Below are positions 2,820 through 52,278 of a stretch of DNA of 52,350 nt, piece by piece. The position numbers and the translations under genes were made by a program. Every line of letters begins with the position of its first letter. Positions within the stretch are counted from its first letter, which is position 1. The notes under the pieces are model-generated. The model was given only the letters and a program-made list of their open reading frames with translations, made no database searches and had not been told where the DNA came from. This DNA comes from Candidatus Daviesbacteria bacterium (GTDB lineage: Bacteria; Patescibacteriota; Microgenomatia; Daviesbacterales; UBA10151), in NCBI GenBank assembly GCA_027451625.1, contig DAIDIY010000047.1, positions 1 through 52,350 on the forward strand. Direction: 5' to 3'.

Positions 2820-4433
2820 ATGAAGTACATCTTTGTTTCAGGCGGAGTTATATCAGGTATAGGTAAGGGAATCGCCACCGCTTCAATCTGTCTACTTCTA
2901 AAAGCTGCTGGATATCGCGTAACAGTTATCAAGATGGATCCATATTTGAATGTAGATGCAGGGACTATGAATCCTCTAGCGCACGGGGAAACTTTTGTTC
3001 TTGATGATGGTCGAGAGACGGATCAAGATTTAGGACATTATGAGAGATATTTAAATCAAAACCTTAATTCGACAAATATAGCTACCCAAGGAAGCATATA
3101 CCTTTCAGTAATCCAAAAGGAACGCAACTTAGAATATGATGGAGATTATGTTGATATACACAATGTTACTCAAGAGATTATAAACCGTATCAACCTGGCA
3201 GGCAAAGAAAATAATGCTGAGATCACAATTATTGAGATTGGGGGGACTACTGGGGAGTATCAAAATGTCTTATTTTTAGAGGCAAATAGGTTATTAAAAT
3301 TAAAAAAGCATAATGATGTAATTCATATTCACATTAGCTATCTACCGATACCCGCCAATATAGGAGAGCTCAAAAGTAAACCAGTCCAGATGTCGGTAAA
3401 AGACTTACATGAAGTAGGAATTCAGCCTGATATCCTTTTAGCTCGAGCCGAAATTTCTATAGATACTCCAAGAATTAAAAGATTGGCATTTAATACAGGG
3501 ATCGAAGAGGAAGATATTATTGCAGCCCCTGATGTTGGTAATATATACGAGATTCCTCTCAACTTTGAATCAGGCCATCTAACCTCACGGATATTAAAAA
3601 AACTAAAACTCCGCCGTCGTAAAACCCACCTCTTAAGCGACTGGAGAAAATTTATTCAAAAAGCCAAGAAAGCAAAAAATGAGGTCAGGATAGCTATCGT
3701 TGGTAAATATTTCGCTTCTGGTTCGGGAGTATTAACTGATTCTTATATTTCAGTTATCGAAGCGATCAAGCATGCCTCTTATACACAAGGACTTATACCC
3801 AAAATTACATGGGTAGACTCAGGTAGAGTTTTAAAAGATATCAGTCAACTTAATGGATTCCAAGGGATTATTGTACCTGGAGGATTCGGATCGCGAGATA
3901 TTGAAGGGAAAATTGAGGCTGTAAAATTTGCTCGAGAGAATAAAATTCCATATTTGGGGCTATGTTATGGAATGCATATGGCAGTCATTGAATATGCACG
4001 AAATGTCTTAAATTTTTCTAACGCTCACACTACAGAGGTTGATCCTAACACAAAATATCCAGTCATTCATATAATGCCCGAACAGCAGAAAAAATTATTA
4101 TCCCGTGATTATGGAGGAACTATGCGCCTTGGAGCATGGGAGTGTGTTCTAAAAGATGGAACTTTAGTCAGAAAACTTTATGGAAAAAAACAGATCTCTG
4201 AAAGGCATCGACACCGTTATGAGTTTAATAATGATTTTCTCCAATCATTTCTGACTAATGGTTTTACTATTTCCGGTACCTCTCCAGATGGAAAATTAGT
4301 AGAAATCATTGAGCTAAGACATCACCCCTTCTTTATTGCTACTCAATTTCATCCTGAGCTTAAATCACGACCACTATCCCCTCATCCATTATTTGTAGGT
4401 TTTATCAAAGCAGCAAGTGAAATTATAAGTTAA
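2820..4433 (+). CDS. pyrG: CTP synthase
   Basis: Converts UTP to CTP using ATP and glutamine-derived ammonia. The N-terminal synthetase domain opens with SGGVISGIGKG (residues 7-17) and contains DPYLNVDAGTM and HGETFVLDDG. The glutaminase domain has PGGFGSRDIEGK, the nucleophile Cys382 in GLCYGM, and the HPE pair near residues 511-513. The nucleotide-binding signature GGTxGxxxN is present as GGTTGEYQN, and the nucleophile elbow has Tyr after Cys where Leu is more usual. Both are mild departures. Length (537 aa) is normal. It ends 6 nt before the dCTP deaminase-family gene, so the two are almost certainly co-transcribed with tmk as a pyrimidine nucleotide block. Confidence 0.98.
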   Translation: MKYIFVSGGVISGIGKGIATASICLLLKAAGYRVTVIKMDPYLNVDAGTMNPLAHGETFVLDDGRETDQDLGHYERYLNQNLNSTNIATQGSIYLSVIQKERNLEYDGDYVDIHNVTQEIINRINLAGKENNAEITIIEIGGTTGEYQNVLFLEANRLLKLKKHNDVIHIHISYLPIPANIGELKSKPVQMSVKDLHEVGIQPDILLARAEISIDTPRIKRLAFNTGIEEEDIIAAPDVGNIYEIPLNFESGHLTSRILKKLKLRRRKTHLLSDWRKFIQKAKKAKNEVRIAIVGKYFASGSGVLTDSYISVIEAIKHASYTQGLIPKITWVDSGRVLKDISQLNGFQGIIVPGGFGSRDIEGKIEAVKFARENKIPYLGLCYGMHMAVIEYARNVLNFSNAHTTEVDPNTKYPVIHIMPEQQKKLLSRDYGGTMRLGAWECVLKDGTLVRKLYGKKQISERHRHRYEFNNDFLQSFLTNGFTISGTSPDGKLVEIIELRHHPFFIATQFHPELKSRPLSPHPLFVGFIKAASEIIS

Positions 4434-9768: not shown

Positions 9769-11625
9769 CTACTCCCCTAGTTTGGCTGCAGAAGTAGATA
9801 CTGGTGCAGCATCGAAGTTTTTTAATTTAGTTTTATCAGGACTAAAATACCAAGTATAAATATTTTTGACAACAGGTGCTGCGACATTTGACCCCTCACC
9901 ACCGCCTTCTATTAAAACTACACTAGAAAGTTGAGGATTATTAATTGGAGCATAAGAAACATACCAAGCATGAGTTCTCCCTTTGGGGTCTCCATATTCT
10001 GCTGTCCCTGTTTTACCAGCCGTAGGGATTGAAAAATTAAAAAATGGCCACGCAGTACCTCCATATTGAGGAACCAGACTGATTCCTTTTTTGACTAAAG
10101 TTATAAAGCTAGGATCAAATTTAAAATCTACAGGAAAAAATGTAAATTTTTTAATCAAAGATCCATCAGATGCAGTAATCTTAGTAACAAGATGAGGTCT
10201 ATAATCTTGACCATTATCAGCGATTAAATTGATCTCATAGATAATTTGTAGAGGAGTAGTGAGCAGATACCCTTGGCCTATCGCCATATGCAAAGTATCA
10301 CCTGGATACCAAATCTGCCCAATATTTTTTTCTTTCCATCTGTTATCAGGAACTAATCCAGTAGCCTCGCCAGGAAGATCTATCCCTAATCTTTGACCGA
10401 ATCCTATCTTTAAAGCAGTATCTCCGAGAATTTTTTCACCAATTTTCTCACCAAGCACATAGAAATAAGTATCATTTGAACGCTGTAAGGCTTTAACCAT
10501 ATCAACCGGTCCCTCAACCTTTCCATATTGTGTATAGTACCAATTTGTAAACGTAAATTTTCCTAGGTGTAAAATTCCAGTATCATTCACAATCGTTTGA
10601 GGTGTTATTTTTCCTGAACTTAATCCTGCTAAAGCTGATGTTATTTTAAAAGTCGATCCGGGAGGATATGTTCCTGAGATAGCTCTATTCAATAATGGAG
10701 CATTAGGATCATTAAAATAACTAGTTATTAAATTATCTTTATGGGGATCAGTAAAAGCATTCGGGTCAAAAGAAGGATAAGAGACCATCGCTAATACATC
10801 TCCATTTTGGGGATTTTGTACTATTGCAGCTCCACAACAAGATCCTACTGATAAAGCCGCCTCTTTGACACTACTATAAAGTTCCTTTTGTAAATTAATA
10901 TCCAATGATAAATAAATATTATCCCCGGGTATGGGGTTAATCGTTCTAAGTGTCTGAATTTTTCGCCCATCTGCATCAACTTCGATAATCTCTGCTCCGT
11001 CTTTCCCACGGAGAACGTTTTCATAAACTTGCTCTACACCAGCTCTTCCAATCCGATCCCCACTTCTATAATTAGCATACTGAGGTTCTTTAAGCTCACC
11101 TGATGATATCTGACCTACATAACCTACAACATGTGCCGCAATCTCTCCGTATGGATAATGCCTTATCGTATCAATCTCTAGCTCATTAGCCCTAGGATCA
11201 TGACTTGCCTCTAAAGACAAAGCTTCATCACGGCTAATAAATTTATTTTTTAATCTAAATCCTGGCTCATTATCTGCTAAAATCTGTCCATTTCGATCAT
11301 ATATTACCCCTCTGGGGGCATGAATAATACGAATTTGAATCCTATTAGAATCTGCCAAAGCTCTATTAGCCTCACCAGTTACTATTTGCAAATAAAACAT
11401 CCTTAAAAACAAACTGAAAGAGATTAAAATAAAGGCAATCCCGATCAATACTATTCTCCAGACTGAAATTAAAGGAACCTCTCTTTCATTAATTAAATTC
11501 GGAATCAAAGAATCTTCCCATTCAGTTTCCTTTTGTTTTCCAGTAGAAATCTTTGAAGAGACTTTCTGTAGGCTGTCATGAAAGGCTAAACCTAATTTTT
11601 TACGATGGCGTCGAAAACTTACCAT
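9769..11625 (-). CDS. mrdA: Penicillin-binding protein 2 (class B PBP transpeptidase)
   Basis: Cross-links peptidoglycan peptides during cell elongation, working with the MreC/MreD/RodA complex. After a basic cytoplasmic tail there is one transmembrane segment (about 55-76) and the class B pedestal starting APRGVIYDRNG. The transpeptidase motifs are all present: STFK at 324-327 (nucleophile Ser324), SND at 383-385 and KTG at 538-540. At 618 residues it is of normal size. It is preceded by mreD (8 nt gap) and mreC (4 nt overlap with mreD), the standard elongasome operon, but rodA and mreB are not in the window. The promoter is probably the one upstream of mreC. Confidence 0.96.
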   Translation of the reverse strand: MVSFRRHRKKLGLAFHDSLQKVSSKISTGKQKETEWEDSLIPNLINEREVPLISVWRIVLIGIAFILISFSLFLRMFYLQIVTGEANRALADSNRIQIRIIHAPRGVIYDRNGQILADNEPGFRLKNKFISRDEALSLEASHDPRANELEIDTIRHYPYGEIAAHVVGYVGQISSGELKEPQYANYRSGDRIGRAGVEQVYENVLRGKDGAEIIEVDADGRKIQTLRTINPIPGDNIYLSLDINLQKELYSSVKEAALSVGSCCGAAIVQNPQNGDVLAMVSYPSFDPNAFTDPHKDNLITSYFNDPNAPLLNRAISGTYPPGSTFKITSALAGLSSGKITPQTIVNDTGILHLGKFTFTNWYYTQYGKVEGPVDMVKALQRSNDTYFYVLGEKIGEKILGDTALKIGFGQRLGIDLPGEATGLVPDNRWKEKNIGQIWYPGDTLHMAIGQGYLLTTPLQIIYEINLIADNGQDYRPHLVTKITASDGSLIKKFTFFPVDFKFDPSFITLVKKGISLVPQYGGTAWPFFNFSIPTAGKTGTAEYGDPKGRTHAWYVSYAPINNPQLSSVVLIEGGGEGSNVAAPVVKNIYTWYFSPDKTKLKNFDAAPVSTSAAKLGE

Positions 11626-17610: not shown

Positions 17611-18555
17611 TTATCCAGGTGGTCTGGTAAAGTTATATATACAAGCTACAGTTTTAATTGGTAGATTTAATTGCTCCTGATTTGTAATTTTTCCCCTGTA
17701 CCTTTGGCTTAATATATTGAAATGTTTAAGGTAACTGATTGGATGTTCTACCTTTACCCTAATGGAGGAGATTTTATGGTTGTTTCTTTTCTCCTCTTCA
17801 GTTAACTCTTTACCTTTAGGTTTTTTCTGAGGTAGGATCATCTTAAGATGAGGATTAATACCATTTGAGCCTAGATATCCTAAATCCGCTATATCTACTG
17901 AATTAGGTGGAATATACAAAGTATTTTTATCAGATTCAAACAATTTCTCATCATGAACAGTTCCTGGAACTGTATCTGAAACAGAAGTTATCCTTTTGGT
18001 TTTAGGATTAACCATAATTTGATTTTTAACACTATGATGTTTCTTTTTGCCTGAATAATAATTTTCTTGATTTATGTTATGGCTAATATTAGCTTTAGCA
18101 TTATCTTTAGGTCGTTGGATTGCTCTTTCAGTACAATCAACAATGAACTCAGATAATTCTGGATACTCCAGTATCCAACTCTCAAATGAGTTAATCCGGT
18201 GTAATCTTTGTTTTAAGGCTAGCTCATGACCTAATGCAGCAAACAGTACTTTAGATAAAAATTTAGTCCAAAGTTGAATGTTCCTTTTATCAAACTCAAA
18301 TAGTACTTGAGCAAATCTAAAGGTAGGATATATTTTGTAGTAAAACAGGATGAAAAACAGTTTATCTGTATCATCTTTTAAAGTTGAATGTCTTCCACCA
18401 CCTACATCCCTGACTCTGATAAATGAATATGCTCTTTTAGTTTCAGCTTGCCTTAGAGCTTTAGAAAATTTAGGCAATAGCTGATTAAATTGATTAAAAG
18501 TAATGCCAATTGCATATTGAAAAAGTTCAGGGTGTTTGAGAAGATAATTTATCAT
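17611..18555 (-). CDS. IS5-family-like DDE transposase
   Basis: Catalyses cut-and-paste or copy movement of the surrounding element. The 314-residue protein has an N-terminal helix-turn-helix region (about 12-35, ITFNQFNQLLPKF). An RNase H-like catalytic domain follows, with plausible DDE residues Asp140 (FIVDCTER), Asp224 (IADLGYLG) and Glu270 (VKVEHPI). The arrangement resembles the HTH_Tnp_4/DDE_Tnp_4 type found in IS5 subgroups. The frame is intact from ATG to TAG-side end inside the repeats. The start codon is buried in a hairpin, a common way of blocking translation from read-through RNA. Confidence 0.88.
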   Translation of the reverse strand: MINYLLKHPELFQYAIGITFNQFNQLLPKFSKALRQAETKRAYSFIRVRDVGGGRHSTLKDDTDKLFFILFYYKIYPTFRFAQVLFEFDKRNIQLWTKFLSKVLFAALGHELALKQRLHRINSFESWILEYPELSEFIVDCTERAIQRPKDNAKANISHNINQENYYSGKKKHHSVKNQIMVNPKTKRITSVSDTVPGTVHDEKLFESDKNTLYIPPNSVDIADLGYLGSNGINPHLKMILPQKKPKGKELTEEEKRNNHKISSIRVKVEHPISYLKHFNILSQRYRGKITNQEQLNLPIKTVACIYNFTRPPG

Positions 18556-21940: not shown

Positions 21941-22642
21941 TTACTTGCCGAAATTCCTCTTTTGTTTTTGATACCAGCTAACTGCTCTTCTTAATTCTTT
22001 CGCTCCAAAATCAGGCCATAAAGTAGGAGTAAAGTATAGCTCCGAGTAGGCTGTTTGCCAGATTAAAAAATTAGAGAGCCTTACTCTGCCACCGGTACGA
22101 ATAACTAACTCGGGCTCAGTTTGACCATTAGTATATAAGTGCTTATCAAGAAGTTCCTCGTTAATTTTATCTAACTCTACACCATTTTTAACTATCTCCT
22201 TAATTGCTGATATAATCTCTTTTTTACCACCATAGTTTAAAGCAATATTTAATTTTATTGCCTCATTTTTGATATATGTTTTGCGCAATTCTCTAATAAT
22301 TTTTTTTATTGTTTCTGGCAATCCGTTCAATTCTCCTAAGATCTCTACAGAAACACCCTTTTTCATCATTTTTTTTAACTTTGTATGATAATTAGTACTA
22401 ATAATTCTAAATAAGCTTAAAACTTCGCGTTTTGCTCTCTCTTTGATATTTTCTGTTGAAAGAGCATAAACAGTAATCGTCTTTATTCCCATATCAGAAG
22501 CTTCATCTACAACTGTTTCTAAAGCATCCGCTCCTGCTTCATGTCCTTTATAGTCCGGTAGGTTATGATTTCTCGCCCATCGACGATTTCCATCCATAAT
22601 GATAGCAATATGAGAAGGAATATTATTTTTACTTAGATCCAT
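21941..22642 (-). CDS. uppS: Isoprenyl (undecaprenyl) diphosphate synthase
   Basis: Cis-prenyltransferase that extends farnesyl diphosphate with isopentenyl diphosphate to make the lipid carrier for peptidoglycan and surface glycans. The start motif MDGNRRWA contains the catalytic Asp. Further blocks are GHEAGADAL, TVYALSTEN, and RTGGRVRLSNFLIWQ with YSELYFT and WPDF near the C-terminus. Length (233 aa) is normal. In the IPP-binding loop the residue usually Glu (GGE) is Arg (GGR). An extended -10 (TGA then TATTAT) ends 7 nt before the ATG. The glycosyltransferase cluster on the other side of the divergent gap probably uses the carrier made here. Confidence 0.96.
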   Translation of the reverse strand: MDLSKNNIPSHIAIIMDGNRRWARNHNLPDYKGHEAGADALETVVDEASDMGIKTITVYALSTENIKERAKREVLSLFRIISTNYHTKLKKMMKKGVSVEILGELNGLPETIKKIIRELRKTYIKNEAIKLNIALNYGGKKEIISAIKEIVKNGVELDKINEELLDKHLYTNGQTEPELVIRTGGRVRLSNFLIWQTAYSELYFTPTLWPDFGAKELRRAVSWYQKQKRNFGK

Positions 22643-30870: not shown

Positions 30871-33060
30871 ATGCTTTCAGATTTTGTATATATTTTTATA
30901 TTTTGGTTAGTTTTATTCTCAATAGGTTTAGTCTTTTTACCTTTGACAGTAACTATTTTCAATAAGTTCTTCGACAGAGGTTATATTTTTTCAAAAATAT
31001 TAGGTCTTACAATAATCAGTTATTTAATATGGATTCTATCAAGTTTTAAAATTTTTCCATTTGCTACATGGGAGATAATTTTAGTATTTTTAGCGTTTAT
31101 CATCTTCAATACATATCTTGCTTCTAAGACTGGCCTAAAACAAATTATTACTTTGCCAATTAAATTATTTGTGGTAGAAGAAGCTATCTTTCTTTTTTGC
31201 CTAACATTCTGGTCATACATTCGCGGATTCAATCCTCAGATTCATGGATTAGAAAAATTTATGGATTATGGATTCGTTAATTCGATTATTCGTTCTACTT
31301 ATTTTCCTCCAAAAGATTTATGGTTAACTCCTTTCACAATCAATTATTACTATTTTGGTCATCTAGTTACTGTAGTCTTAACTAAACTCTCTGGGATCAA
31401 TCCCGATATTACCTATAATCTGATGATTGCCACTCTATTTGCATTTGCATTCAGTGCTTCGTTCTCAATTGGAACAAACCTGTTTCATAAATTAAACCCC
31501 AATTCAAATAAGCTTATCTTTTTAGCAGGATTCCTAAGTGCCTACTTGGTTAGTTTAGGAGGAAACTTACATACGATATACATTTTTTTTCAAACGTATA
31601 CTCCTCCGGACAAGCCGGTACCGTTTTGGCAACTTCCTCTCCAGCTGAATTTAACAGGTTATTGGTATCCAAATGCTACCAGGTTTATTCCTTTTACTAT
31701 TCATGAATTCCCTATATACTCTTTCGTTGTTTCAGATCTTCATGGGCATGTCTTAGACATACCATTTGTTTTGGTATTCATCGCATTTATAATTAAATTC
31801 TTTTTCGAACCTAAATTTACTAAGTTAGATCTTTTACTGAGCTCGTTACTAGTCGCAGTATTCTTAATGACCAATGTACTTGATGGTCCGATATATCTTA
31901 TGATTATTGGTCTGGTTTTTTATTCGAAAAAAGTCTACCAACAAGCTATTGACAAGGACATATCATTTATCAAGAGTATGACTCTTAATCATAATTCAGT
32001 AATACTTAATGTAATTAAACAGGTAGGTATAATAACTGTTCTGTCCATAGTATTATCTTTTCCTTTTTGGGTTAATTTTAAGCCGTTTGGAGCAGGAATT
32101 GGGGTTATATGTGCACCGACGTTTTTAACGAAGATTGGACACATAGGACCTCTGCTTTTTGAACCGGATCACTGTCAAAGATCGCCACTTTGGATGTTAC
32201 TTATTTTATGGGGACTACCTCTTTTCCTTACTTTAGTCTACCTATATTATTTAATCTATAAAAAACCTAAACAAAATTCTAAATTACATATTTTAGTCAC
32301 GACACTTCTTATTTCAGGATTTATTTTAGTTGCTATCCCAGAGATATTTTATGTTAAAGATATATACCCTGCCTACTATAGGGCTAACACAGTATTTAAA
32401 TTTGGTTATCAAGCATTTATAATCTTTGGACTGATCGGAGGATACATTCTAACCAGAATATTTGCCTCGGCAAAATCTATACCGATTGTAATCAAAGTTG
32501 TCACCTGTTTTTTATTGTTCCTGGCTGCGATTTATCCATATTTTGCAATCAATTCATATTATGGATCCCTTGCTTCTTATAAAGGACTTAATGGTTTTAA
32601 TTATTTCTCAACCCTGTATCCCCAAGATTACAAGGCAATCCTTTGGTTAAGACAGAATATTTCAGGTCAACCTGTAATTTTAGAAGCTCAAGGGGATTCT
32701 TATACAGACTATGCTAGAGTTTCATCTAACACTGGTTTACCAACTATTTTGGGTTGGCCTGTTCATGAATGGCTTTGGAGAGGTAGATATTCAGACAATT
32801 CTGTGGTCACTGGTAATTTTGATCCGACAATTCATGATGTTCCAGCTCCTAGAGTTAATGAAGTTACTACACTCTATCAAACATCAGATATTCAACTGAC
32901 CAAAGAGCTTCTTAAAAAATATCAAGTTCGTTATGTATTTATTGGAGCTTTGGAACGGCAGAAGTATCTAAATTTAAACGAGGTAAAATTTACCAAATTA
33001 GGTAAGATAGTTTTTTCTGATGGATTTACTAGTATTTATAAAATTAATCAAAATCTATAA
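30871..33060 (+). CDS. DUF2298-family polytopic membrane protein
   Basis: A 729-residue multi-span protein. The outer loop YYYFGHLVTVVLTKLSG (about 164-180) and the block SDLHGHVLDIPF (about 287-298) mark the DUF2298 (Chlor_Arch_YYY) family. This family occurs in Chloroflexi, archaea and CPR and has a GT-C-like build. YYRANTVFKFGYQA and a soluble C-terminal domain (about 600-729) with GWPVHEWLWRG follow. The biochemical role is uncharacterised; membrane glycosyl transfer is inferred from topology and from the three GT-C genes upstream. It ends the cluster and overlaps the convergent yjbQ stop by 6 nt. Confidence 0.85.
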   Translation: MLSDFVYIFIFWLVLFSIGLVFLPLTVTIFNKFFDRGYIFSKILGLTIISYLIWILSSFKIFPFATWEIILVFLAFIIFNTYLASKTGLKQIITLPIKLFVVEEAIFLFCLTFWSYIRGFNPQIHGLEKFMDYGFVNSIIRSTYFPPKDLWLTPFTINYYYFGHLVTVVLTKLSGINPDITYNLMIATLFAFAFSASFSIGTNLFHKLNPNSNKLIFLAGFLSAYLVSLGGNLHTIYIFFQTYTPPDKPVPFWQLPLQLNLTGYWYPNATRFIPFTIHEFPIYSFVVSDLHGHVLDIPFVLVFIAFIIKFFFEPKFTKLDLLLSSLLVAVFLMTNVLDGPIYLMIIGLVFYSKKVYQQAIDKDISFIKSMTLNHNSVILNVIKQVGIITVLSIVLSFPFWVNFKPFGAGIGVICAPTFLTKIGHIGPLLFEPDHCQRSPLWMLLILWGLPLFLTLVYLYYLIYKKPKQNSKLHILVTTLLISGFILVAIPEIFYVKDIYPAYYRANTVFKFGYQAFIIFGLIGGYILTRIFASAKSIPIVIKVVTCFLLFLAAIYPYFAINSYYGSLASYKGLNGFNYFSTLYPQDYKAILWLRQNISGQPVILEAQGDSYTDYARVSSNTGLPTILGWPVHEWLWRGRYSDNSVVTGNFDPTIHDVPAPRVNEVTTLYQTSDIQLTKELLKKYQVRYVFIGALERQKYLNLNEVKFTKLGKIVFSDGFTSIYKINQNL

Positions 33061-33495
33061 GTATTCTTCTCCTGATATCTGAACTATTAAGCTTCTATCT
33101 CTTATGTGGTCCAATTCGATAAAAAAAATATTTTGATAAGTTCCCAAAAGTAGTTTCCCATCAGATATAGGTATAATTTCAGAAGGTCCTAGAAGAAGAT
33201 GCTGACAATGTGAATGTGCATTAGGTTTTTTATCCAGCAGGTGATCAGGACTTTTTGAATGATTATACAAAGCCTCCTTGGGAGCAAGAGAGCAAAGAAA
33301 GTTTTTTATATCTTGCTCCAATAACTTTTCTGACTCTTGAATTATTACCGCTGCAGTCGTATGTCGAGAGAATATCAGAACCTGACCGTCTTTTATATTA
33401 CTTTCTTTTACCAAATCTCCTATTTTATCTGTAATATTAATCAGATCTGGAGCTTTATTTCGACTCTTTAAAGAGATAGTTGTTGTCTTTATCAT
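33055..33495 (-). CDS. YjbQ/UPF0047 family protein
   Basis: A 146-residue single-domain protein of the YjbQ family, some members of which show weak thiamine-phosphate synthase activity; the physiological role is unsettled. Diagnostic motifs are SRHTTAAVIIQE (His and Glu of the metal site), NAHSHCQHLLLG and the C-terminal IFFIELDHIRDRSLIVQISG. Length is normal. It is divergent from the sigma-factor gene across a 39-bp gap and converges with the DUF2298 gene, overlapping by 6 nt. Confidence 0.9.
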   Translation of the reverse strand: MIKTTTISLKSRNKAPDLINITDKIGDLVKESNIKDGQVLIFSRHTTAAVIIQESEKLLEQDIKNFLCSLAPKEALYNHSKSPDHLLDKKPNAHSHCQHLLLGPSEIIPISDGKLLLGTYQNIFFIELDHIRDRSLIVQISGEEYL

Positions 33496-33534: not shown

Positions 33535-34101
33535 ATGATAAAAACTACACGGCCAAAAAGTCTAAGTTATAAAAGTTTCGAATCATCTTACAAGAAGCTG
33601 GCTCTGCCTATAATGAAATTTATTATTAAAAGAATGGGAACAAACAGTCCGGAAGCAGAAGAGATTTTTTCTCAAACTATGATTGCTGCTTGGCAAGGAT
33701 GGCTAACGTTTGAACACAAGAGTAGCTATTTTACATGGATTTGTCGGATAGCCCTTAATAAAATAGCAGATTATTACCGCAAAGAGATTAATAATCATTC
33801 CAGATTAATAGCTCCAACTCTAGAAGAGATAGCAAATATAGGAGATCCGAGCATAACTATTGATGAGTCATTAGCTCTTTTAGAATTAAGACAATCTGTA
33901 AGAGAATGTCTTAACCTACTACCAGAGCATAAAAGACAGTTACTATACCTTAGATTCTGGAAAGAACTAACCTATAGCGAGATCGCTAAATTATTAAATC
34001 AGAGCAATAGATCTATAGAAGGCAAACTATATAGATACAAAATTGAGCTTAAAAAAATTTTGATTTCGAAATACCCGGAGTTAATTGCGATTAAAAATTA
34101 G
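33535..34101 (+). CDS. RNA polymerase sigma factor, ECF-like (sigma-70 regions 2 and 4)
   Basis: A 188-residue sigma factor. Region 2 (about 20-85) contains SPEAEEIFSQTMIAAWQGW and the TWICRIALNKIADYYRK helix that contacts the -10. Region 4 (about 130-180), LPEHKRQLLYLRFWKELTYSEIAKLL, is the -35-binding helix-turn-helix. There is no region 3, as in ECF factors. No anti-sigma gene is adjacent on either side, so the usual partner is missing locally. An extended -10-like TGTTATATT lies 13 nt before the ATG. Its targets are unknown. Confidence 0.9.
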   Translation: MIKTTRPKSLSYKSFESSYKKLALPIMKFIIKRMGTNSPEAEEIFSQTMIAAWQGWLTFEHKSSYFTWICRIALNKIADYYRKEINNHSRLIAPTLEEIANIGDPSITIDESLALLELRQSVRECLNLLPEHKRQLLYLRFWKELTYSEIAKLLNQSNRSIEGKLYRYKIELKKILISKYPELIAIKN

Positions 34102-34150: not shown

Positions 34151-35185
34151 TTATTTTTGCCTCTGGATTAAAAAATCAGCCATCTCAGAAAGGAGCTTTT
34201 TATGACCATGACTTACATTCATTCTTTGAATTATTTTATGAGCTTCTGAAACTAATCTTTGCGAATAATTCTGAGCAAAATCTAAAGCACCTGTACTAAT
34301 AAATAACTGCTTAACTTTTTCAAGATCTTCTTCATTTATCTCTCCATGACCATAATAGTCTCTTAAGACTTTTTTACTAAGACCACTTGATTTCTCAGCT
34401 GCTATAATATAAAGAATAGTTACTTTACCTTCTGCTACATCTGAAGTTACTGATTTTCCCAACTCTTTTTCATTACCAAATACTCCAAGAACATCATCTT
34501 GAATTTGGTAAGCTATTCCTAAATTTTCTCCTAGCAGCTTCAGTTGATAAAGAAGCTTGTCATCTCCATCTGCCAAAATTGCTCCAATTAGCAAAGGATA
34601 AACGATAGTATAATAAGCAGTCTTAAATTTATAGATTGTAATAACGTCATTTAGGCCATATTTTTGTTTCCGAGAAGCTAGTTTTACATCCAGCATTTCA
34701 CCTAACACTGTATTAATAAACATTTCAGAGAATGCTCCTAAAGCCTTAATTTTATTTTTATTGGAAAAGTTGGTTTCTGCGATTAAACGATTTGCAATGA
34801 AGAATCCAATATCTCCCAAACAAATAGTTTGAGCTATTGCTTCGTGATCTCCTCCCAAAGCTTGATACAAGGTTTTTTTACCTCTTCTTAGCATACTTTT
34901 ATCGATAATATCATCATGTGCTAGTATAGCTGTCTGAAAAATCTCTATAGCGGTTGATATTTTTAGTATATCTTCTGATTTTTCTCCACCACCAAGATCA
35001 TATCCTAGTTGCACCAAAGTTCCCCGGAGTCTTTTCCCCCCCTCAGAGCTACTTATAAAAGTTTTTGTTAAGGGTAATAATTTAGATGAGACTTGAGAGA
35101 CTCCTGAGTTCCATTTTTTAAGTTCTTGCCTCAAAGACTCATTAATATCAGTCCCTATTTGTTGTAAATAATCTAAAAAACCCAT
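34151..35185 (-). CDS. Polyprenyl diphosphate synthase (geranylgeranyl-type)
   Basis: Trans-prenyltransferase that builds C20 or longer chains from isopentenyl diphosphate. The first aspartate-rich motif is HDDIIDKSMLRRG (DDxxD at 91-95) and the second is QIQDDVLGVFG (230-237). The latter is followed by LGKSVTSDVAEGK, as in archaeal GGPP synthases. The residue five before the first motif is Ala (not an aromatic), which fits products longer than C15. At 344 residues the size is typical. It is divergent from isopentenyl phosphate kinase with only 39 bp between the starts, so prenyl precursor formation and chain elongation are probably co-regulated. Confidence 0.93.
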   Translation of the reverse strand: MGFLDYLQQIGTDINESLRQELKKWNSGVSQVSSKLLPLTKTFISSSEGGKRLRGTLVQLGYDLGGGEKSEDILKISTAIEIFQTAILAHDDIIDKSMLRRGKKTLYQALGGDHEAIAQTICLGDIGFFIANRLIAETNFSNKNKIKALGAFSEMFINTVLGEMLDVKLASRKQKYGLNDVITIYKFKTAYYTIVYPLLIGAILADGDDKLLYQLKLLGENLGIAYQIQDDVLGVFGNEKELGKSVTSDVAEGKVTILYIIAAEKSSGLSKKVLRDYYGHGEINEEDLEKVKQLFISTGALDFAQNYSQRLVSEAHKIIQRMNVSHGHKKLLSEMADFLIQRQK

Positions 35186-35207
35186 CTGCTAAATTTAGCA
35201 TAAAGGT

Positions 35208-35216
35208 TTGGTATAA
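35208..35216 (+). promoter_or_regulatory. Extended -10 promoter of the isopentenyl phosphate kinase gene, leaderless type
   Basis: TGG then TATAAT, followed by 8 nt to the ATG at 35225. It lies in the 39-bp gap shared with the divergent polyprenyl synthase. Confidence 0.65.
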
Positions 35217-35224
35217 TTCAATTC

Positions 35225-36019
35225 ATGTCAAGGAATCTTATTATCATCAAGATTGGAGGAAGTGTTATAACTGATAAGACTAAAGACATTCCGACTCCAA
35301 ATATTAAAATTATTAAAGATATAGGGCAACAGCTATCTCAACTTTATAAATTAGGGAGCTATCAGCTCTTACTGATTCATGGAGCAGGATCTTATGGTCA
35401 TCCTCTAGTCAAACAATTTAATTTAAATGAAGGAATAAAAACGGAAAAACAATTCTCAGCAGTCTCTCAAGTACAAAGTTTAATGATCCAATTAAATAAT
35501 CTAATGTTAAATTATTTCGATTTTCCTTGTACTGTTTTTCCTCCTCATTCTTTTATATATCAAGACAACAAAGAGCTCTCTTCTTTCAATACAGAGTTAA
35601 TCGAAAAAGCTCTTTCACAAAATATTGTTCCAGTTCTTTTTGGAGATATGATTTACGATATAAGTCTGGGATACTCAGTTGTCTCTGGAGACACATTAAC
35701 ATCTTACTTGGCTCAGAAGATATATCCCAAAAAAGTCATTTTTTTATCTGATGTCAACGGTATATATGATCGAAATCCTAAAATTTATTCAGAGGCTAAA
35801 CTGATTACTGAGATTAATAGCTCGAACTTAAAATCGGTACTAACCAAATTATCTACTAATAAATCAAATGATACAACTGGAGAGATGAGAGGAAAATTAT
35901 TAAGTATTCAAAAATATCTTCCAGGAATAGAAGTATTAATTATCAATGGAGGTTATCAACTAGATATTAGAGCTGCTGTCTCAGACTCATATCTTTTTGG
36001 GACCAAAATACTATTTTGA
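35225..36019 (+). CDS. Isopentenyl phosphate kinase
   Basis: Amino-acid-kinase-fold enzyme that phosphorylates isopentenyl phosphate to isopentenyl diphosphate, the last step of the modified mevalonate pathway known from archaea. The ATP loop is KIGGSVITDK (9-18). The hallmark HGAGSYGH (52-59) carries the catalytic His59 that separates this family from other kinases of the fold. GDTLTSYLA and FLSDVNGIYDRNP are further family blocks. At 264 residues it is of normal length. No other mevalonate-pathway gene is in the window. Its 3' end overlaps the convergent NUDIX-like gene by 64 nt. Confidence 0.92.
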   Translation: MSRNLIIIKIGGSVITDKTKDIPTPNIKIIKDIGQQLSQLYKLGSYQLLLIHGAGSYGHPLVKQFNLNEGIKTEKQFSAVSQVQSLMIQLNNLMLNYFDFPCTVFPPHSFIYQDNKELSSFNTELIEKALSQNIVPVLFGDMIYDISLGYSVVSGDTLTSYLAQKIYPKKVIFLSDVNGIYDRNPKIYSEAKLITEINSSNLKSVLTKLSTNKSNDTTGEMRGKLLSIQKYLPGIEVLIINGGYQLDIRAAVSDSYLFGTKILF

Positions 36020-36678
36020 TTGTTTCCTATTATATCCAAATAATCAAAGACTATAGAAGGTAATCTCCCCGAAGGGCTTTCGAGCACAGGTGGACGATAT
36101 AAAGATCCCAATGAAGCTCTTAATCTATAACAATAAACTCCGTCCCAAGTTCCAGGTCTCCAACCTAACCTACCTAGATTAATTGAAGTATCCTTTGATA
36201 ATTTAGTAGATAAAAGATGAAGAGCAGATTTAACTTCTGGATGAAGATTTTCTGGAATCTCTGGAGTTTGTTGTCCATGTAGTGTATACAAAGGAGCCTG
36301 TAAAATATTGGAGGCAGAGTGCCAATAGATACCATCCACATCATTAAATTGAGATCCACGACCTCTTTTATTAGTCGTATGGAGCTCGTAGATATTAACC
36401 CAAACCCCCGGAGTCATTTGTACACGACAGAGGTGCCCATCCTTTAAGCTCTCTGGCGTCAAAATCTCTATTTGCAAACCGGCTGCTTCCTCTTCTAATA
36501 GTCTAAGAGTCGTTTGGAAATCACTCTCTCCAGGTTCTTGTGTCTCCATAGGGATCGTCAACATCCCAGCTACTTTACCTGTTACACGTTTAGAAGTATT
36601 TTCTCTCGTAGACAAAATTTTTCCATCAGGACCTACGATTACGGCGCAAACTCCAGAGATATTAACAATTTCATTCAT
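35956..36678 (-). CDS. NUDIX-like hydrolase
   Basis: A 240-residue protein whose first half resembles a NUDIX domain. SGVCAVIVGPDGKILSTREN is the start of the fold, and PGESDFQTTLRLLEEE (about 49-64) aligns with the NUDIX box. The first Glu of REUxEE is Leu and the usual GG is missing, so the box is degenerate, though two acidic metal ligands remain. The C-terminal about 100 residues are outside the NUDIX core and not recognised. The last 64 nt are antisense to the isopentenyl phosphate kinase gene. Substrate is unknown and activity uncertain. Confidence 0.7.
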   Translation of the reverse strand: MNEIVNISGVCAVIVGPDGKILSTRENTSKRVTGKVAGMLTIPMETQEPGESDFQTTLRLLEEEAAGLQIEILTPESLKDGHLCRVQMTPGVWVNIYELHTTNKRGRGSQFNDVDGIYWHSASNILQAPLYTLHGQQTPEIPENLHPEVKSALHLLSTKLSKDTSINLGRLGWRPGTWDGVYCYRLRASLGSLYRPPVLESPSGRLPSIVFDYLDIIGNNQNSILVPKRYESETAALISS

Positions 36679-47929: not shown

Positions 47930-48862
47930 ATGTCGATATTAAAAAGAATCTTTTTTTCCATCCCTTTTCTGATATGTTTTATTATCTTTAATAATTATTT
48001 AAGTATCTTTTTAGAAAATACTAATAATATTCTCTCTTTAAATCTAACAGTTTATTTACAGACATTATATCTTGCTCTTTTCCTTATCTTAAGTGGATTT
48101 TTCTTGATAATTTTTATAACACTTGCAGAGAAATGGTTTTTAGTAATTCCTGTTATTACTATTGCAAGTGTATCTTCTTTCTTATCATATACTCCCCCCA
48201 TTGTATACATTATGCTCATAGGCTCAATAATTTCATTTTTAATAATCTATATCACTCTCCTTAACAAGCTAAAAACTTATCTTTCATTTTCGCCTACAAT
48301 TATTCTTGTCCCATCGATCAAACATTTAGTAATTTTATTAATATTAATTTCGTCTATATCATTCTACTTAATTGAAAGTTCTCGCATAAAGGCTAATGGT
48401 TTTACCATACCTACAAGCATTCTCAATCAGGAATTAAATCTTGTTAATTCTCAACTAAATCAAGGAGTTGGACAGAATAACCTGAACAGTATTCCCCAGA
48501 TATCTGCACAAAATTTACAAATACTTAAAAATAATCCTCAAGCATTAAAACAATTTGGGATTAATCCTGATATCATAAATAATTTCATCCAAAATGGAGC
48601 TGTTAATATTAATACTCAAAGTGTTCCCCAAAGCTTTACTAAAAATCTAATTGAGAACCAGATGAACGCTTTTATAAGACCTTATCTGAAATTTATCGCC
48701 CCAGTGCTTACTTTACTTTTCTTTCTGACCTTAACCTCTTTTACTTCCTTATTAGAGTTACTCTTAACTCCTTTGGTTGGAACTTGCTTTTGGATACTCG
48801 AAAAAATTCATTTTACTTCTTACCAAATAGAGATGCGTGAAGTAAAAAAATTAATTACTTAG
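47930..48862 (+). CDS. Polytopic membrane protein with a soluble Asn/Gln-rich loop, unknown function
   Basis: Not recognised. The 310-residue protein has about five N-terminal membrane segments (8-25, 45-65, 70-88, 92-110, 130-148). An exposed loop of about 105 residues follows (about 150-255), rich in Asn and Gln with pieces such as NNPQALKQFGINPDIINNF. One long C-terminal hydrophobic hairpin (about 258-292) ends the protein. The loop looks helical and could be a binding module. It is divergent from the TrmH-like gene and overlaps the polA stop by 4 nt. A TATAAT at 47907-47912 lies 17 nt before the ATG. Confidence 0.6.
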   Translation: MSILKRIFFSIPFLICFIIFNNYLSIFLENTNNILSLNLTVYLQTLYLALFLILSGFFLIIFITLAEKWFLVIPVITIASVSSFLSYTPPIVYIMLIGSIISFLIIYITLLNKLKTYLSFSPTIILVPSIKHLVILLILISSISFYLIESSRIKANGFTIPTSILNQELNLVNSQLNQGVGQNNLNSIPQISAQNLQILKNNPQALKQFGINPDIINNFIQNGAVNINTQSVPQSFTKNLIENQMNAFIRPYLKFIAPVLTLLFFLTLTSFTSLLELLLTPLVGTCFWILEKIHFTSYQIEMREVKKLIT

Positions 48863-51800
48863 TCTGAAACCTCAAATGATTCCATCTGTCCCCAATTATG
48901 TCCTACTTTTACTTCTACTTTAACCGGAACCGAAAGCTTTAAAGCATTCTCCATATTTTCCTTAACAATGGCTGCAGATTGGCTTAAATCATGTGGATTA
49001 CATTCAAAAAGAAGCTCATCATGAATTTGTAATATCATTTTACAGCCTACATTTTTCTCTTTAAATTTTTGATCTATTTGCAACATTGCTTTTTTTATCA
49101 TGTCGGCAGCTGTATTTTTTGAAATAACTCCTTCACTATCAAATCTATGACTTCCAGGGACACTTAAAGTATATGTTGTCTCAAATCGGTCAAGTTCTTC
49201 AATCTCTAAAATCTCGTTATATTGATAGACTGGAGTTTCTATTCTGAAAAAACCTCCCTCCATCCCGCTTTGGGGATAAATCAAAGGTGAACATCCTCCA
49301 TAATCTTTAAGAGGATAATATGCATTTGGAACAAACTGAACTTTATAAGACTGTTTTTCTACATAAAAATCATTTCGTACTGTAGGTAGAGGATATAAAT
49401 TTCTTAAATTTTGATTATACTTTGGCAACTCCACCGTAGTAATTAAACTCTTTACTATATCAAGTCGATAAAAAGAATTATTTTTATAAAAATATGGACC
49501 TTTAATTAAGCTTCCTACTCCCAGTGTTCTAAGTAGAAGCTGGAGATCTTGAAGAAGTTCCCTTGAATCAAGACAAACGGTTAAATTACCACCTTGGTCA
49601 TCTTCACCCTCAGAAGAATCTAAAATCCCTTTTATGAAATAAAAACGTTTTTCAATAGATTCTGTAAAAATAAGTGAAGGAATGGTTTTGGTATCTCCTA
49701 CTTCCAAATGTTTAAAGATATCTCCTAAAATCTGCGACTGAATTACCACTGAATAAGATGTTGAAGATTTACCTTTATTCCTTTGCTCTTTTAGATTTGG
49801 ATCTAAAAGAGCAAAAAACCGAATACACTCTTTTCTCTTTTGGGTTTCATCTTTTGAGAATAAATAAGTCAATGAATAAATCTCATCCTTACTTTTCTTC
49901 TTAGACAGATATCCGTTACCAATATAGTATCCTAACCAATACCATAAATCTTTCTTCATAATAAACTCTAAAAAAAGATCACTCTTTCTCTTTTCTTCCT
50001 GGTCGTATTTTGCAGATTTTGGATAAAATTCAAAAATCATCGGCACACTAAAACATACTTTTACTCCTGGTCTTAATTTTATAAATTCCATCCATTCATA
50101 TCCTTGCTCTCCTACGGTTAAAACTTTATGCCGCGTATCACATTTGAAGATTTGCCCATTAGAAAATTTTATTCTTGCTAACTGTGCTGTACCACGATTT
50201 AGTACTGTATAAGGCCTCCATTCAGTTCCATCCCAGACAAAAGGTGGTTTTGGATCTGACTTATAGAGCGTGCCAATTGGAATATATCCACTTGAAGTTA
50301 AAATTCTTGTATCTTCTGGAAGGCATCCTTGGACCGGATGATTGACAGCAGCTCTTTCTCCGAAAGATGAAAGAGCATGATTTGACGATCCTAACTCAGG
50401 GATATATCTTTTTCTCCCCCAAACGGTCTCAACAAATCCTTTCTCTCTACCCTCCTGGATAATTTTATTCATCCAGTCGTGTACTTTAGGAAACTGCATA
50501 AAATATTCACTAATATAACCCTGAGCTGTTTTATAATCAACTCCGAGTTGTCTACTTAACGAATGCGCTCCCTGTCCATAAAGGGTAGCGAAGTTCGTCG
50601 TTTTCCCTACCATCCGTTGTTCTTTAGTAACCTTACCAATTGGTATATTAAAAATCCTTGCTGCTGTGGCTGCATGAATATCCAGACCTTCCTCGAAACT
50701 CTTCCTAAGCCCTGGGTCATCAGTTAGATGGGCCATTATTCTAAGTTCAATCTGAGAATAGTCTGCTCCCAAAAGAATTTTTCCAGGTTCTGCTATAAAA
50801 GATTTACGAATCTCTCCCCCTTCAGTTCCTCTGATAGGAATATTCTGTAAGTTTGGATTCTGAGAAGAAAGCCTACCAGTCGCAGCCCCTTCTACATTAA
50901 ATGTTGAATGAACTCGTCCATTTATATCTGCATATTTTGGTAAAGCATCAAGATAAGTAGAAATCAATTTAAAAAGCTGACGATATTCCAAAATGAGCTT
51001 TACTGCGGGATGAAAATTAATAAGCTGAATTAAAGTTTCTTCATCAGTTGAGCGACCTGTTTTGATTTTTTTAATAACAGGAAGATTAAGTTGATCAAAT
51101 AATAGCTGTTGAAGTTGTTTAGGGCTCTTTATATTGATCTCATGTCCTATTATCGAGTAAATCTCTCTCTCTAAATCGACTAGTCTCCCTTTCATGTCGA
51201 TTCTCAATTTATCTAAAAACTTCAAATCTATTAATACTCCATTCTCAGACATCTGTTGTAGTAGAGGCTCAACTTGATGATCTAATTCTGTAGTAAATGA
51301 TGAGTCATTGGAAATGCTATATCTATCCTCCCCTGACTCCTTCAAATTATCTTCACCAGGTAATTTATTGTTCATATTTTCAAAGGTATCGTCTTCAGAT
51401 CTATGTTCCTTATCTCCATTTGGAATCCTTGAAAGTAAACTTTTAAATTCAAGTTGAGTAAAAATGTTTATTAAATCATCACGATTAAAGTTTGAGACAA
51501 TACTCTTTTGAAGGTCAAACTTTACAGGAAGTTCAGTTTCTATAGTAGCTAATTTCTTGCTCAATCTTGCATTTTCTTCTCCTTCTATCAGTAATTTCTT
51601 AATTCGTTCAGGAAGATCATTAAGATTTTTATATACATTCTCTAAAGTCTTATACTTCTGAATAAGTTTCGTAGCAGTTACTTCTCCAATACCAGATACG
51701 CCCGGTATATTATCAGAAGCGTCTCCAGCTAGACCTTTAAAATCAACTAAGTACTTTGGCTCAAATCCAAATCTAGCTATAAACTCTTCTTCCCCATATA

Positions 51801-52278
51801 ATCCGACGTCCTGAATCGTTTTTTTAGGCATAAACACTTTAACTCTATGATCTATTAGTTGCATGATATCTCTATCTCCAGTAACTATTATTACTTCCGT
51901 AGATTTCTGTTGTCTCTCTGTTAGTCGAGCTAATGTTCCAACTAGATCATCAGCCTCAAAGCCAGGTAATTTAAACTCTGGAATATTAAAGGCAGAAACT
52001 ACCTGATGAACCCTCTCGTATTGAGAAGTAAGATTGTCGTCAGCTGGTCCTCTATTGGCTTTATAACTTTCAAACTGATTATGACGGAAAGTAGGAGATC
52101 TCATGTCCCATGCTACCGCCAAATAATCTGGCTTTAGGTCTTCTAGAACCTTAAATAACATAGAAGAGAATCCATAAACTGCATTAATTATCTCTCCTTT
52201 AGAAGTTGTAAACATCGGTGTCGCATGGAAGGCGCGATGTAAAAGAGCATTACCATCAATTAAAACGAGTCGTTTCAT
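48859..52278 (-). CDS. polA: DNA polymerase I containing an intein
   Basis: The 1139-residue precursor should splice to a 735-residue polymerase. The 5'-nuclease domain (about 1-285) has DGNALLHRAFHA, GFEADDLVG, GDRDIMQLI and GVSGIGEVTA. The polymerase domain begins near 330. Motif A is DYSQIELRIMAHL (506-518), motif B RMVGKTTNFATLYG (555-568) and motif C QIHDELLFE (1084-1092). The 3'-5' exonuclease domain found in E. coli Pol I is absent, replaced by a linker of about 45 residues, so the enzyme should not proofread. An intein (652-1055) splits the conserved NHPVQG/TAADMIKKAM block. An extended -10 (TGG, TAAAAT) ends 6 nt before the ATG. The gene ends by a 4-nt tail-to-tail overlap with a membrane-protein gene. 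Confidence 0.97.
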   Translation of the reverse strand: MKRLVLIDGNALLHRAFHATPMFTTSKGEIINAVYGFSSMLFKVLEDLKPDYLAVAWDMRSPTFRHNQFESYKANRGPADDNLTSQYERVHQVVSAFNIPEFKLPGFEADDLVGTLARLTERQQKSTEVIIVTGDRDIMQLIDHRVKVFMPKKTIQDVGLYGEEEFIARFGFEPKYLVDFKGLAGDASDNIPGVSGIGEVTATKLIQKYKTLENVYKNLNDLPERIKKLLIEGEENARLSKKLATIETELPVKFDLQKSIVSNFNRDDLINIFTQLEFKSLLSRIPNGDKEHRSEDDTFENMNNKLPGEDNLKESGEDRYSISNDSSFTTELDHQVEPLLQQMSENGVLIDLKFLDKLRIDMKGRLVDLEREIYSIIGHEINIKSPKQLQQLLFDQLNLPVIKKIKTGRSTDEETLIQLINFHPAVKLILEYRQLFKLISTYLDALPKYADINGRVHSTFNVEGAATGRLSSQNPNLQNIPIRGTEGGEIRKSFIAEPGKILLGADYSQIELRIMAHLTDDPGLRKSFEEGLDIHAATAARIFNIPIGKVTKEQRMVGKTTNFATLYGQGAHSLSRQLGVDYKTAQGYISEYFMQFPKVHDWMNKIIQEGREKGFVETVWGRKRYIPELGSSNHALSSFGERAAVNHPVQGCLPEDTRILTSSGYIPIGTLYKSDPKPPFVWDGTEWRPYTVLNRGTAQLARIKFSNGQIFKCDTRHKVLTVGEQGYEWMEFIKLRPGVKVCFSVPMIFEFYPKSAKYDQEEKRKSDLFLEFIMKKDLWYWLGYYIGNGYLSKKKSKDEIYSLTYLFSKDETQKRKECIRFFALLDPNLKEQRNKGKSSTSYSVVIQSQILGDIFKHLEVGDTKTIPSLIFTESIEKRFYFIKGILDSSEGEDDQGGNLTVCLDSRELLQDLQLLLRTLGVGSLIKGPYFYKNNSFYRLDIVKSLITTVELPKYNQNLRNLYPLPTVRNDFYVEKQSYKVQFVPNAYYPLKDYGGCSPLIYPQSGMEGGFFRIETPVYQYNEILEIEELDRFETTYTLSVPGSHRFDSEGVISKNTAADMIKKAMLQIDQKFKEKNVGCKMILQIHDELLFECNPHDLSQSAAIVKENMENALKLSVPVKVEVKVGHNWGQMESFEVSD
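49114..50325 (-). other. Intein in DNA polymerase I with a degenerate LAGLIDADG endonuclease
   Basis: 404 residues, Cys652 to Asn1055, followed by Thr1056 as the +1 nucleophile. Block A is CLPEDTRILTSSGYIPIG and block B has KCDTRHKVLT with His717. The C-terminal block is HRFDSEGVISKN, so the residue before Asn is Lys rather than the usual His. The endonuclease motifs are WLGYYIGNGYL (781-791) and FIKGILDSSEGE (881-892). The catalytic Asp positions of a DOD intein are Asn788 and Ser889 here, so DNA cleavage is probably lost while splicing is kept. The intein is needed out for polymerase function because it lies beside the active site. Confidence 0.93.

What the first reader, a model, noticed from the sequence alone, without database searches (positions are those of the whole stretch)
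34151..36019. Isopentenyl phosphate kinase back-to-back with a polyprenyl diphosphate synthase
The archaeal-style kinase (His59 hallmark) and a geranylgeranyl-type synthase start 39 bp apart on opposite strands, so they share one promoter region. This points to a modified mevalonate route or to salvage of isopentenyl phosphate in a bacterium that may lack complete lipid synthesis. uppS elsewhere in the window gives the product an outlet in wall or glycan assembly.
Basis: partly seen in the sequence, partly recalled or inferred. Interest (0 to 1): 0.52.

Follow-up and report, generated by a model that had tools for sequence, protein, structure and literature searches.

The report
Orphan isopentenyl phosphate kinase salvage locus
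A tiny, probably host-dependent bacterium seems to have lost every known way of making isoprenoid building blocks but keeps one kinase that could activate ready-made five-carbon units, next to the enzymes that join them into cell-wall carrier lipids.

Summary
An isopentenyl phosphate kinase (IPK, 35225-36019 +) and an E-type polyprenyl diphosphate synthase (34151-35185 -) start 39 bp apart, back to back. IPK membership is solid: NCBIfam cut-off passed (204 vs 120 bits), catalytic His59, and a model whose 17 best structural matches are all IPKs. The "modified mevalonate" reading fails: the 98%-complete genome has no HMG-CoA reductase, no GHMP kinase (mevalonate kinase, decarboxylases, IspE), no IspH, no DXR and no detected isomerase. 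This is not a one-off: of 373 genomes of the class, 82 carry IPK and 63 of these lack both HMGR and IspH, four of them single-contig. IPK genes sit within about 1.5 kb of a polyprenyl or undecaprenyl synthase in 18 of 33 loci, against 0 of 20 other amino-acid-kinase loci. In MEP-bearing relatives the IPK's slot holds IspG/IspH. Best explanation: the IPK is the entry point for C5 monophosphates obtained from outside (or recycled), feeding PPS, UppS and wall synthesis. The source of those units is inferred, not shown. The enzyme is known; its use as sole precursor enzyme in Microgenomates (CPR) I did not find described in nine searches of an open-access library.

The parts
35225..36019 (+). isopentenyl phosphate kinase (IPK), 264 aa, His59
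   Evidence: NF040647 204.3 bits vs cut-off 120; best PDB match 8u0k 1.8e-42; model pLDDT 89.5, best 17 VIA-align entries all IPK, Z 27.5-31.5, next family 23.4
34151..35185 (-). E-type polyprenyl diphosphate synthase (PPS), 344 aa, product length unknown
   Evidence: PF00348 185 bits; only PF00348 match in the genome
35186..35224 (.). 39-bp gap between the two divergent start codons
   Evidence: read from sequence; promoter scan not above shuffles
35956..36678 (-). Nudix-fold protein, convergent with and overlapping the IPK 3' end by 64 bp; conserved neighbour of the Daviesbacteria-type IPK
   Evidence: PF00293 21.9 bits vs 21.1; neighbour in 7 of 12 loci of this IPK clade vs 1 of 21 of the other; Nudix-fold matches Z about 15
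33055..33495 (-). YjbQ/UPF0047 family protein that travels with the PPS/IPK locus
   Evidence: TIGR00149 114.8 bits vs 67.75; homologues in the same locus of relatives
33535..34101 (+). ECF-type sigma factor, conserved locus neighbour
   Evidence: TIGR02937 80.8 bits vs 42.9; homologues beside PPS or IPK in relatives
21941..22642 (-). UppS, cis-prenyl (undecaprenyl) diphosphate synthase: proposed consumer
   Evidence: TIGR00055 245.7 bits vs 109.55
9769..11625 (-). PBP2-type transpeptidase: shows demand for undecaprenyl phosphate
   Evidence: PF00905 212.6 bits
12083..12874 (-). MreC, wall elongation
   Evidence: PF04085 109.3 bits

Best explanation
The gene encodes a genuine IPK (shown by sequence and model, not by assay) that is the only recognisable isoprenoid-precursor enzyme in this cell (shown within genome completeness and the markers searched). 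It phosphorylates isopentenyl phosphate, and probably dimethylallyl phosphate, to the diphosphates (inferred). PPS extends these to an allylic diphosphate and UppS to the undecaprenyl-type carrier used for wall and glycan assembly (inferred from families). Since no known pathway makes the C5 unit here, the monophosphates must come from outside (host or community, perhaps as C5 alcohols first phosphorylated by a promiscuous kinase) or from recycling of acquired diphosphates (inferred). The locus looks like the remnant of a larger isoprenoid cluster: relatives keep MEP-tail or mevalonate genes beside the same PPS, and this lineage kept only the kinase.
For: Own genome (1,149,767 bases, 51 contigs, 98.45% complete): 0 GHMP kinases, 0 IspH, 0 HMGR, 0 DXR, 0 IDI-2; IPK present. 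Each of these searches rang in control genomes. Class survey of 373 genomes: IPK over cut-off in 82, IspH in 38, HMGR in 115; 63 of 82 IPK carriers have neither, 57 of the 63 at 90% completeness or more. Single-contig cases: G003, G038, G053, G231. Having a de novo marker is rarer with IPK (19 of 82) than without (134 of 291), Fisher p=0.0002, not corrected for kinship. Context: PPS or UppS near 18 of 33 other IPK loci vs 0 of 20 other AA-kinase loci; with isomerase-like Nudix 23 of 33 vs 0 of 20. Closed genome G003 has isomerase-like Nudix, UppS-PPS fusion, IPK, PPS, YjbQ and UppS on one strand. G026 has an IPK-Nudix fusion frame. Same slot: IspG-IspH in G011 and G016, both IPK and IspG-IspH in G012. 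Closest solved relative was solved with DMAP bound (8u0k title).
Against: No transporter or source of isopentenyl phosphate was identified, and none was searched for. No isomerase was found in this genome: IDI-2 absent, IDI-1-like query absent, so DMAPP would have to come from dimethylallyl phosphate or a longer allylic phosphate. G029 carries an orphan IPK but no PF00348 synthase, and 10 of 33 IPK loci had no such neighbour. 157 of 373 genomes have neither IPK nor either marker, so IPK is not the only way these bacteria cope. The 51-contig assembly could hide a gene. Activity was not measured.
Confidence: 0.6

Rival explanations
1. Recycling and balance: the cell imports prenyl diphosphates or longer prenols; phosphatases, perhaps the overlapping Nudix protein, make monophosphates and the IPK restores them, like the plant IPK-Nudix couple.
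For: The Nudix gene overlaps the IPK end and is a neighbour in 7 of 12 loci of this IPK clade vs 1 of 21 in the other; plant precedent described in PMC8701039 (passages).
Against: The Nudix box has a hydrophobic residue where MutT has the first Glu of RExxEE in all five aligned members (motif recalled), so hydrolysis is doubtful; a PDB sequence search found no Nudix relative.
Confidence: 0.15
2. A still unknown de novo route makes isopentenyl phosphate in these bacteria and the IPK is its last step.
For: Precedent: IPK in archaea pointed to the alternative mevalonate pathway (Dellas 2013, PMC3857490, passages). 63 of 82 IPK carriers lack both known-route markers.
Against: Genomes of about 1 Mb from a group described as lacking lipid, amino-acid and nucleotide synthesis (PMC7143001, passages); no conserved candidate enzyme cluster seen beside IPK other than Nudix and YjbQ proteins.
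Confidence: 0.08
3. The kinase acts on another substrate, such as a different small phosphate or a fosfomycin-like compound.
For: Acetylglutamate kinase and the fosfomycin kinase FomA are the next folds after IPK (Z about 23); no activity data.
Against: IPK cut-off passed and other models not; catalytic His kept; isoprenoid neighbours 18 of 33 vs 0 of 20; IPK-Nudix fusion in G026.
Confidence: 0.07
4. Alternative (decarboxylating) mevalonate pathway whose other genes were missed by assembly gaps or divergence.
For: 14 of 82 IPK carriers in the class do have HMGR.
Against: HMGR and every GHMP kinase are absent together here and also in closed G003; chance loss of all from a 98% complete genome is unlikely.
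Confidence: 0.05
5. A relic: IPK kept after pathway loss and no longer useful.
For: Locus looks like the remains of a larger cluster.
Against: Intact frame, catalytic residues invariant in 20 sequences at about 30-44% identity to the window protein, and wide retention: 63 of 373 genomes as orphan.
Confidence: 0.05

Closest known systems
Archaeal isopentenyl phosphate kinases (Thermococcus paralvinellae 8u0k, 3ll9, M. jannaschii 3k4o, T. acidophilum 3ll5)
   Same: Fold, catalytic His, Lys and Gly-rich loops, 26-36% identity
   Different: There IPK ends an alternative mevalonate pathway; here no upstream gene is found
Chloroflexi (Roseiflexus) alternative mevalonate pathway (Dellas 2013, PMC3857490, passages)
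   Same: IPK in bacteria
   Different: Roseiflexus has mevalonate phosphate decarboxylase; this genome has no GHMP kinase
Plant IPK-Nudix monophosphate/diphosphate balance (PMC8701039, passages)
   Same: IPK with an associated Nudix-fold protein
   Different: Plants make IPP de novo; here no known route was found; Nudix box degenerate
Artificial terpene mini-path from C5 alcohols (PMC8701039, passages)
   Same: IPK turns externally derived C5 monophosphate into IPP/DMAPP for downstream synthases
   Different: Engineered, and needs a first alcohol kinase, which was not looked for here
Parvarchaeota lacking both isoprenoid routes (PMC5864196, passages)
   Same: Small symbiont-like genomes without MVA or MEP, uptake from the environment proposed
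   Different: No IPK-based entry was proposed in the passages seen

Membership tests
Isopentenyl phosphate kinase | Score over the curated family cut-off | tested here: met
   NF040647 204.3 vs 120 bits
Isopentenyl phosphate kinase | Catalytic His (H60 in PMC3857490) and active-site Lys/Gly residues (roles recalled) | tested here: met
   H59, K9, G12, K18 invariant in 20 rows
Isopentenyl phosphate kinase | AA-kinase fold closest to solved IPKs | tested here: met
   17 best entries all IPK, Z 27.5-31.5, rmsd 1.8-2.2, 227-252 aligned; next 23.4
Isopentenyl phosphate kinase | ATP-dependent phosphorylation of isopentenyl phosphate | not testable with these tools
   needs an assay
Alternative or classical mevalonate pathway | HMG-CoA reductase | tested here: not met
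   0 matches in G000
Alternative or classical mevalonate pathway | GHMP kinases (mevalonate kinase, PMK, decarboxylases) | tested here: not met
   0 matches in G000, 3 candidates scored
MEP pathway | IspH | tested here: not met
   0 matches, 1 candidate scored
MEP pathway | DXR | tested here: not met
   0 matches, 3 candidates scored
MEP pathway | DXS, IspD, IspF, IspG in this genome | not tested
Geranylgeranyl diphosphate synthase | Polyprenyl synthase domain | tested here: met
   PF00348 185 bits
Geranylgeranyl diphosphate synthase | GGPP-synthase equivalog score | tested here: not met
   NF041003 159.8 vs cut-off 500
Plant-like IPK-Nudix couple | Nudix gene conserved beside IPK | tested here: met
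   7 of 12 loci of this clade vs 1 of 21
Plant-like IPK-Nudix couple | Hydrolysis of prenyl diphosphates by the Nudix protein | tested here: inconclusive
   Nudix fold but degenerate box; activity needs an assay

The most novel reading that the evidence does not exclude
The orphan IPKs of Microgenomates mark an undescribed source of isopentenyl phosphate: either a third, unknown de novo route to the C5 monophosphate, or a dedicated natural monophosphate (or C5-alcohol) uptake-and-activation pathway, with the Nudix and YjbQ neighbours as further parts, by which host-dependent bacteria take isoprenoid units from others.
Probability: 0.2. Interest if true: 0.8.

Novelty: new variant of a known kind. 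Interest (0 to 1): 0.5.

Why it matters
How bacteria of the candidate phyla radiation obtain isoprenoids for their wall lipid carrier is open. [quoted passage not shown] An IPK beside PPS and UppS names a concrete, assayable entry point, and would show a natural counterpart of an engineered salvage route. It also gives a testable dependency of the symbiont on its host.

Tried and rejected
Modified mevalonate route: rejected. IDI-2: only one of 38 relatives over cut-off, not this genome. The window Nudix as the missing isomerase: not supported; no NCBIfam model hit it at E 0.01, IDI structures are not among the 50 rows shown (not an exclusion), and relatives carry it alongside a separate IDI-like Nudix. 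The IDI-like Nudix of relatives is itself uncertain: below its NCBIfam cut-off (63 vs 127 bits), although its ten PDB hits are all IDI-1, and by my reading of that alignment the site of the E. coli catalytic Cys (position recalled) is not Cys. Shared promoter: scan no better than shuffles. Pocket: at the two positions mutated in the M. alvus IPK entries (I74A, I146A) the window has Val by my reading of the alignments; consistent with a C5 pocket, not proof. Tree: bootstrap not settled; two main CPR groups plus L151 among archaeal rows; in that script L121, a Daviesbacteria record, was labelled archaeal because of my id range. Two CPR rows there missed my motif pattern only at the first His; the catalytic His is present. 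A string test for L119 was void (locus too short). Papers PMC7143001, PMC8421398, PMC10663253, PMC9166423, PMC5864196, PMC8701039, PMC3857490, PMC11052028 and PMC8677530 were read as passages only; Hoshino and Gaucher 2018 was not held, so its content is unknown to me.

Full report
Observation. The kinase passes the curated IPK model and no other AA-kinase model, carries His59 with K9, G12 and K18 invariant across 20 IPKs, and its predicted structure (mean pLDDT 89.5) matches 17 IPK entries first, Z 27.5-31.5, before any other family at 23.4. The partner is an E-type polyprenyl synthase of unknown product length.

Whose genome. The window is contig 47 of a 1.15-Mb, 51-contig assembly, 98.45% complete. 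Relatives placed in the same family by the tool include contigs identical over the tested stretch to named Candidatus Daviesbacteria records (L117, L118, L121), so this is a Daviesbacteria-like member of the Microgenomates, candidate phyla radiation. That label is by kinship; the own record was not named.

No upstream pathway. In this genome PF00288 (GHMP kinases), PF00368 (HMGR), PF02401 (IspH), PF02670 (DXR) and TIGR02151 (IDI-2) gave no match, and an IDI-1-like query gave none. Absence of IspH and DXR, and of IspE through the GHMP model, argues against a standard MEP pathway; absence of HMGR and GHMP kinases argues against all mevalonate variants known to me.

The pattern repeats. In 373 genomes drawn from the class, IPK is over its cut-off in 82, IspH found in 38, HMGR in 115, never IspH with HMGR. 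Of the 82, 63 have neither, 14 have HMGR, 5 have IspH. 57 of the 63 are at least 90% complete, and G003, G038, G053 and G231 are single contigs. IPK is therefore mostly an orphan here. The Fisher test against de novo markers (19 of 82 vs 134 of 291, p=0.0002) ignores kinship. 157 of 373 have none of the three.

Context. I looked at 33 IPK loci other than the window's: the 26 new ones returned plus 7 (one, in G020, is a partial gene at a contig end and below cut-off). These are the best-scoring loci, not a random sample. Within about 1.5 kb a PPS or UppS homologue is found in 18 of 33, and a PPS, UppS or isomerase-like Nudix in 23 of 33; 20 lower-scoring AA-kinase loci treated the same way gave 0 and 0. 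In closed genome G003 an isomerase-like Nudix, a UppS-PPS fusion, IPK, PPS, YjbQ and UppS lie within about 7 kb on one strand. In G026 one 441-aa frame joins IPK to a Nudix domain. This context argues against another substrate.

The slot. In Daviesbacteria-family relatives the order DUF2298 protein, YjbQ, sigma factor, PPS, [slot], DsbA-like, Pth, ligase-like protein is recognisable, with gaps and changes from genome to genome. The slot holds IspG-IspH in G011 and G016; IPK with a different Nudix protein and IspG-IspH in G012; IPK, Nudix, isomerase-like Nudix and IspH in G013, whose PPS lies elsewhere; and only IPK and Nudix in the window. In mevalonate-bearing G019 the PPS lies beside HMGR. 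The simplest history is loss of upstream genes with the kinase kept.

Mechanism. Shown: family, catalytic residues, predicted fold, neighbours, lack of the upstream markers searched. Inferred: activity on isopentenyl phosphate and probably dimethylallyl phosphate (closest solved relative is deposited with DMAP), extension by PPS and UppS, use in wall and glycan assembly (PBP2, MreC and PMT-type proteins in the window), and an outside or recycled origin of the C5 monophosphate. DMAPP supply is a weak point: no isomerase was found. In G029 there is an orphan IPK without any PF00348 synthase, which the model does not explain.

The overlapping Nudix protein is a conserved companion of this IPK clade (7 of 12 vs 1 of 21 loci; two of the five loci without it, L089 and L091, are cut short). 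Its predicted fold is Nudix (Z about 15 to many members, tied; model pLDDT 75.8 from five sequences), and its box lacks the first Glu of RExxEE in all five aligned members (motif recalled). A role in monophosphate balance, as proposed for plants (PMC8701039, passages), is possible but unproved.

Literature. Searches and 73 of an open-access library returned no paper that, in listing or passages seen, reports orphan IPK in CPR bacteria. Dellas 2013 found clear bacterial IPK homologues only in the class Chloroflexi (PMC3857490, passage). A CPR survey reports only C10-C20 steps in most classes (PMC9166423, passage). Most subscription papers are not in that library, and Hoshino and Gaucher 2018 could not be read, so novelty in print is uncertain.

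Noticed in passing
relatives G011, G012, G013, G016, G021, G037 (L072, L073, L078, L079, L081): Truncated MEP tail: 8 of 38 relatives have IspH, 6 of these 8 lack DXR and 7 lack any GHMP kinase, so IspE; IspG sits beside IspH in G011, G012, G016. They may take up a late MEP intermediate.
   Followed up: partly
L076:7574-8899 (G026): One 441-aa frame fuses IPK with a C-terminal Nudix domain (PF00293 60.5 bits).
   Followed up: partly
L071:5724-7532 (G003): 602-aa fusion of UppS and a polyprenyl synthase.
   Followed up: partly
whole genome G000; window 2820-4433: IPK is the only AA_kinase found, so no PyrH-type UMP kinase was detected although a CTP synthase-like ORF is in the window (my reading of the translation).
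   Followed up: no
48859-52278 (-): DNA polymerase I interrupted by an intein-like insert with a LAGLIDADG_3 match.
   Followed up: no
33055-33495 (-): YjbQ/UPF0047 protein keeps company with PPS in relatives with IPK and in relatives with IspG-IspH instead; its link to isoprenoids is unexplained.
   Followed up: no
17611-18555 (-): DDE transposase (DDE_Tnp_4).
   Followed up: no
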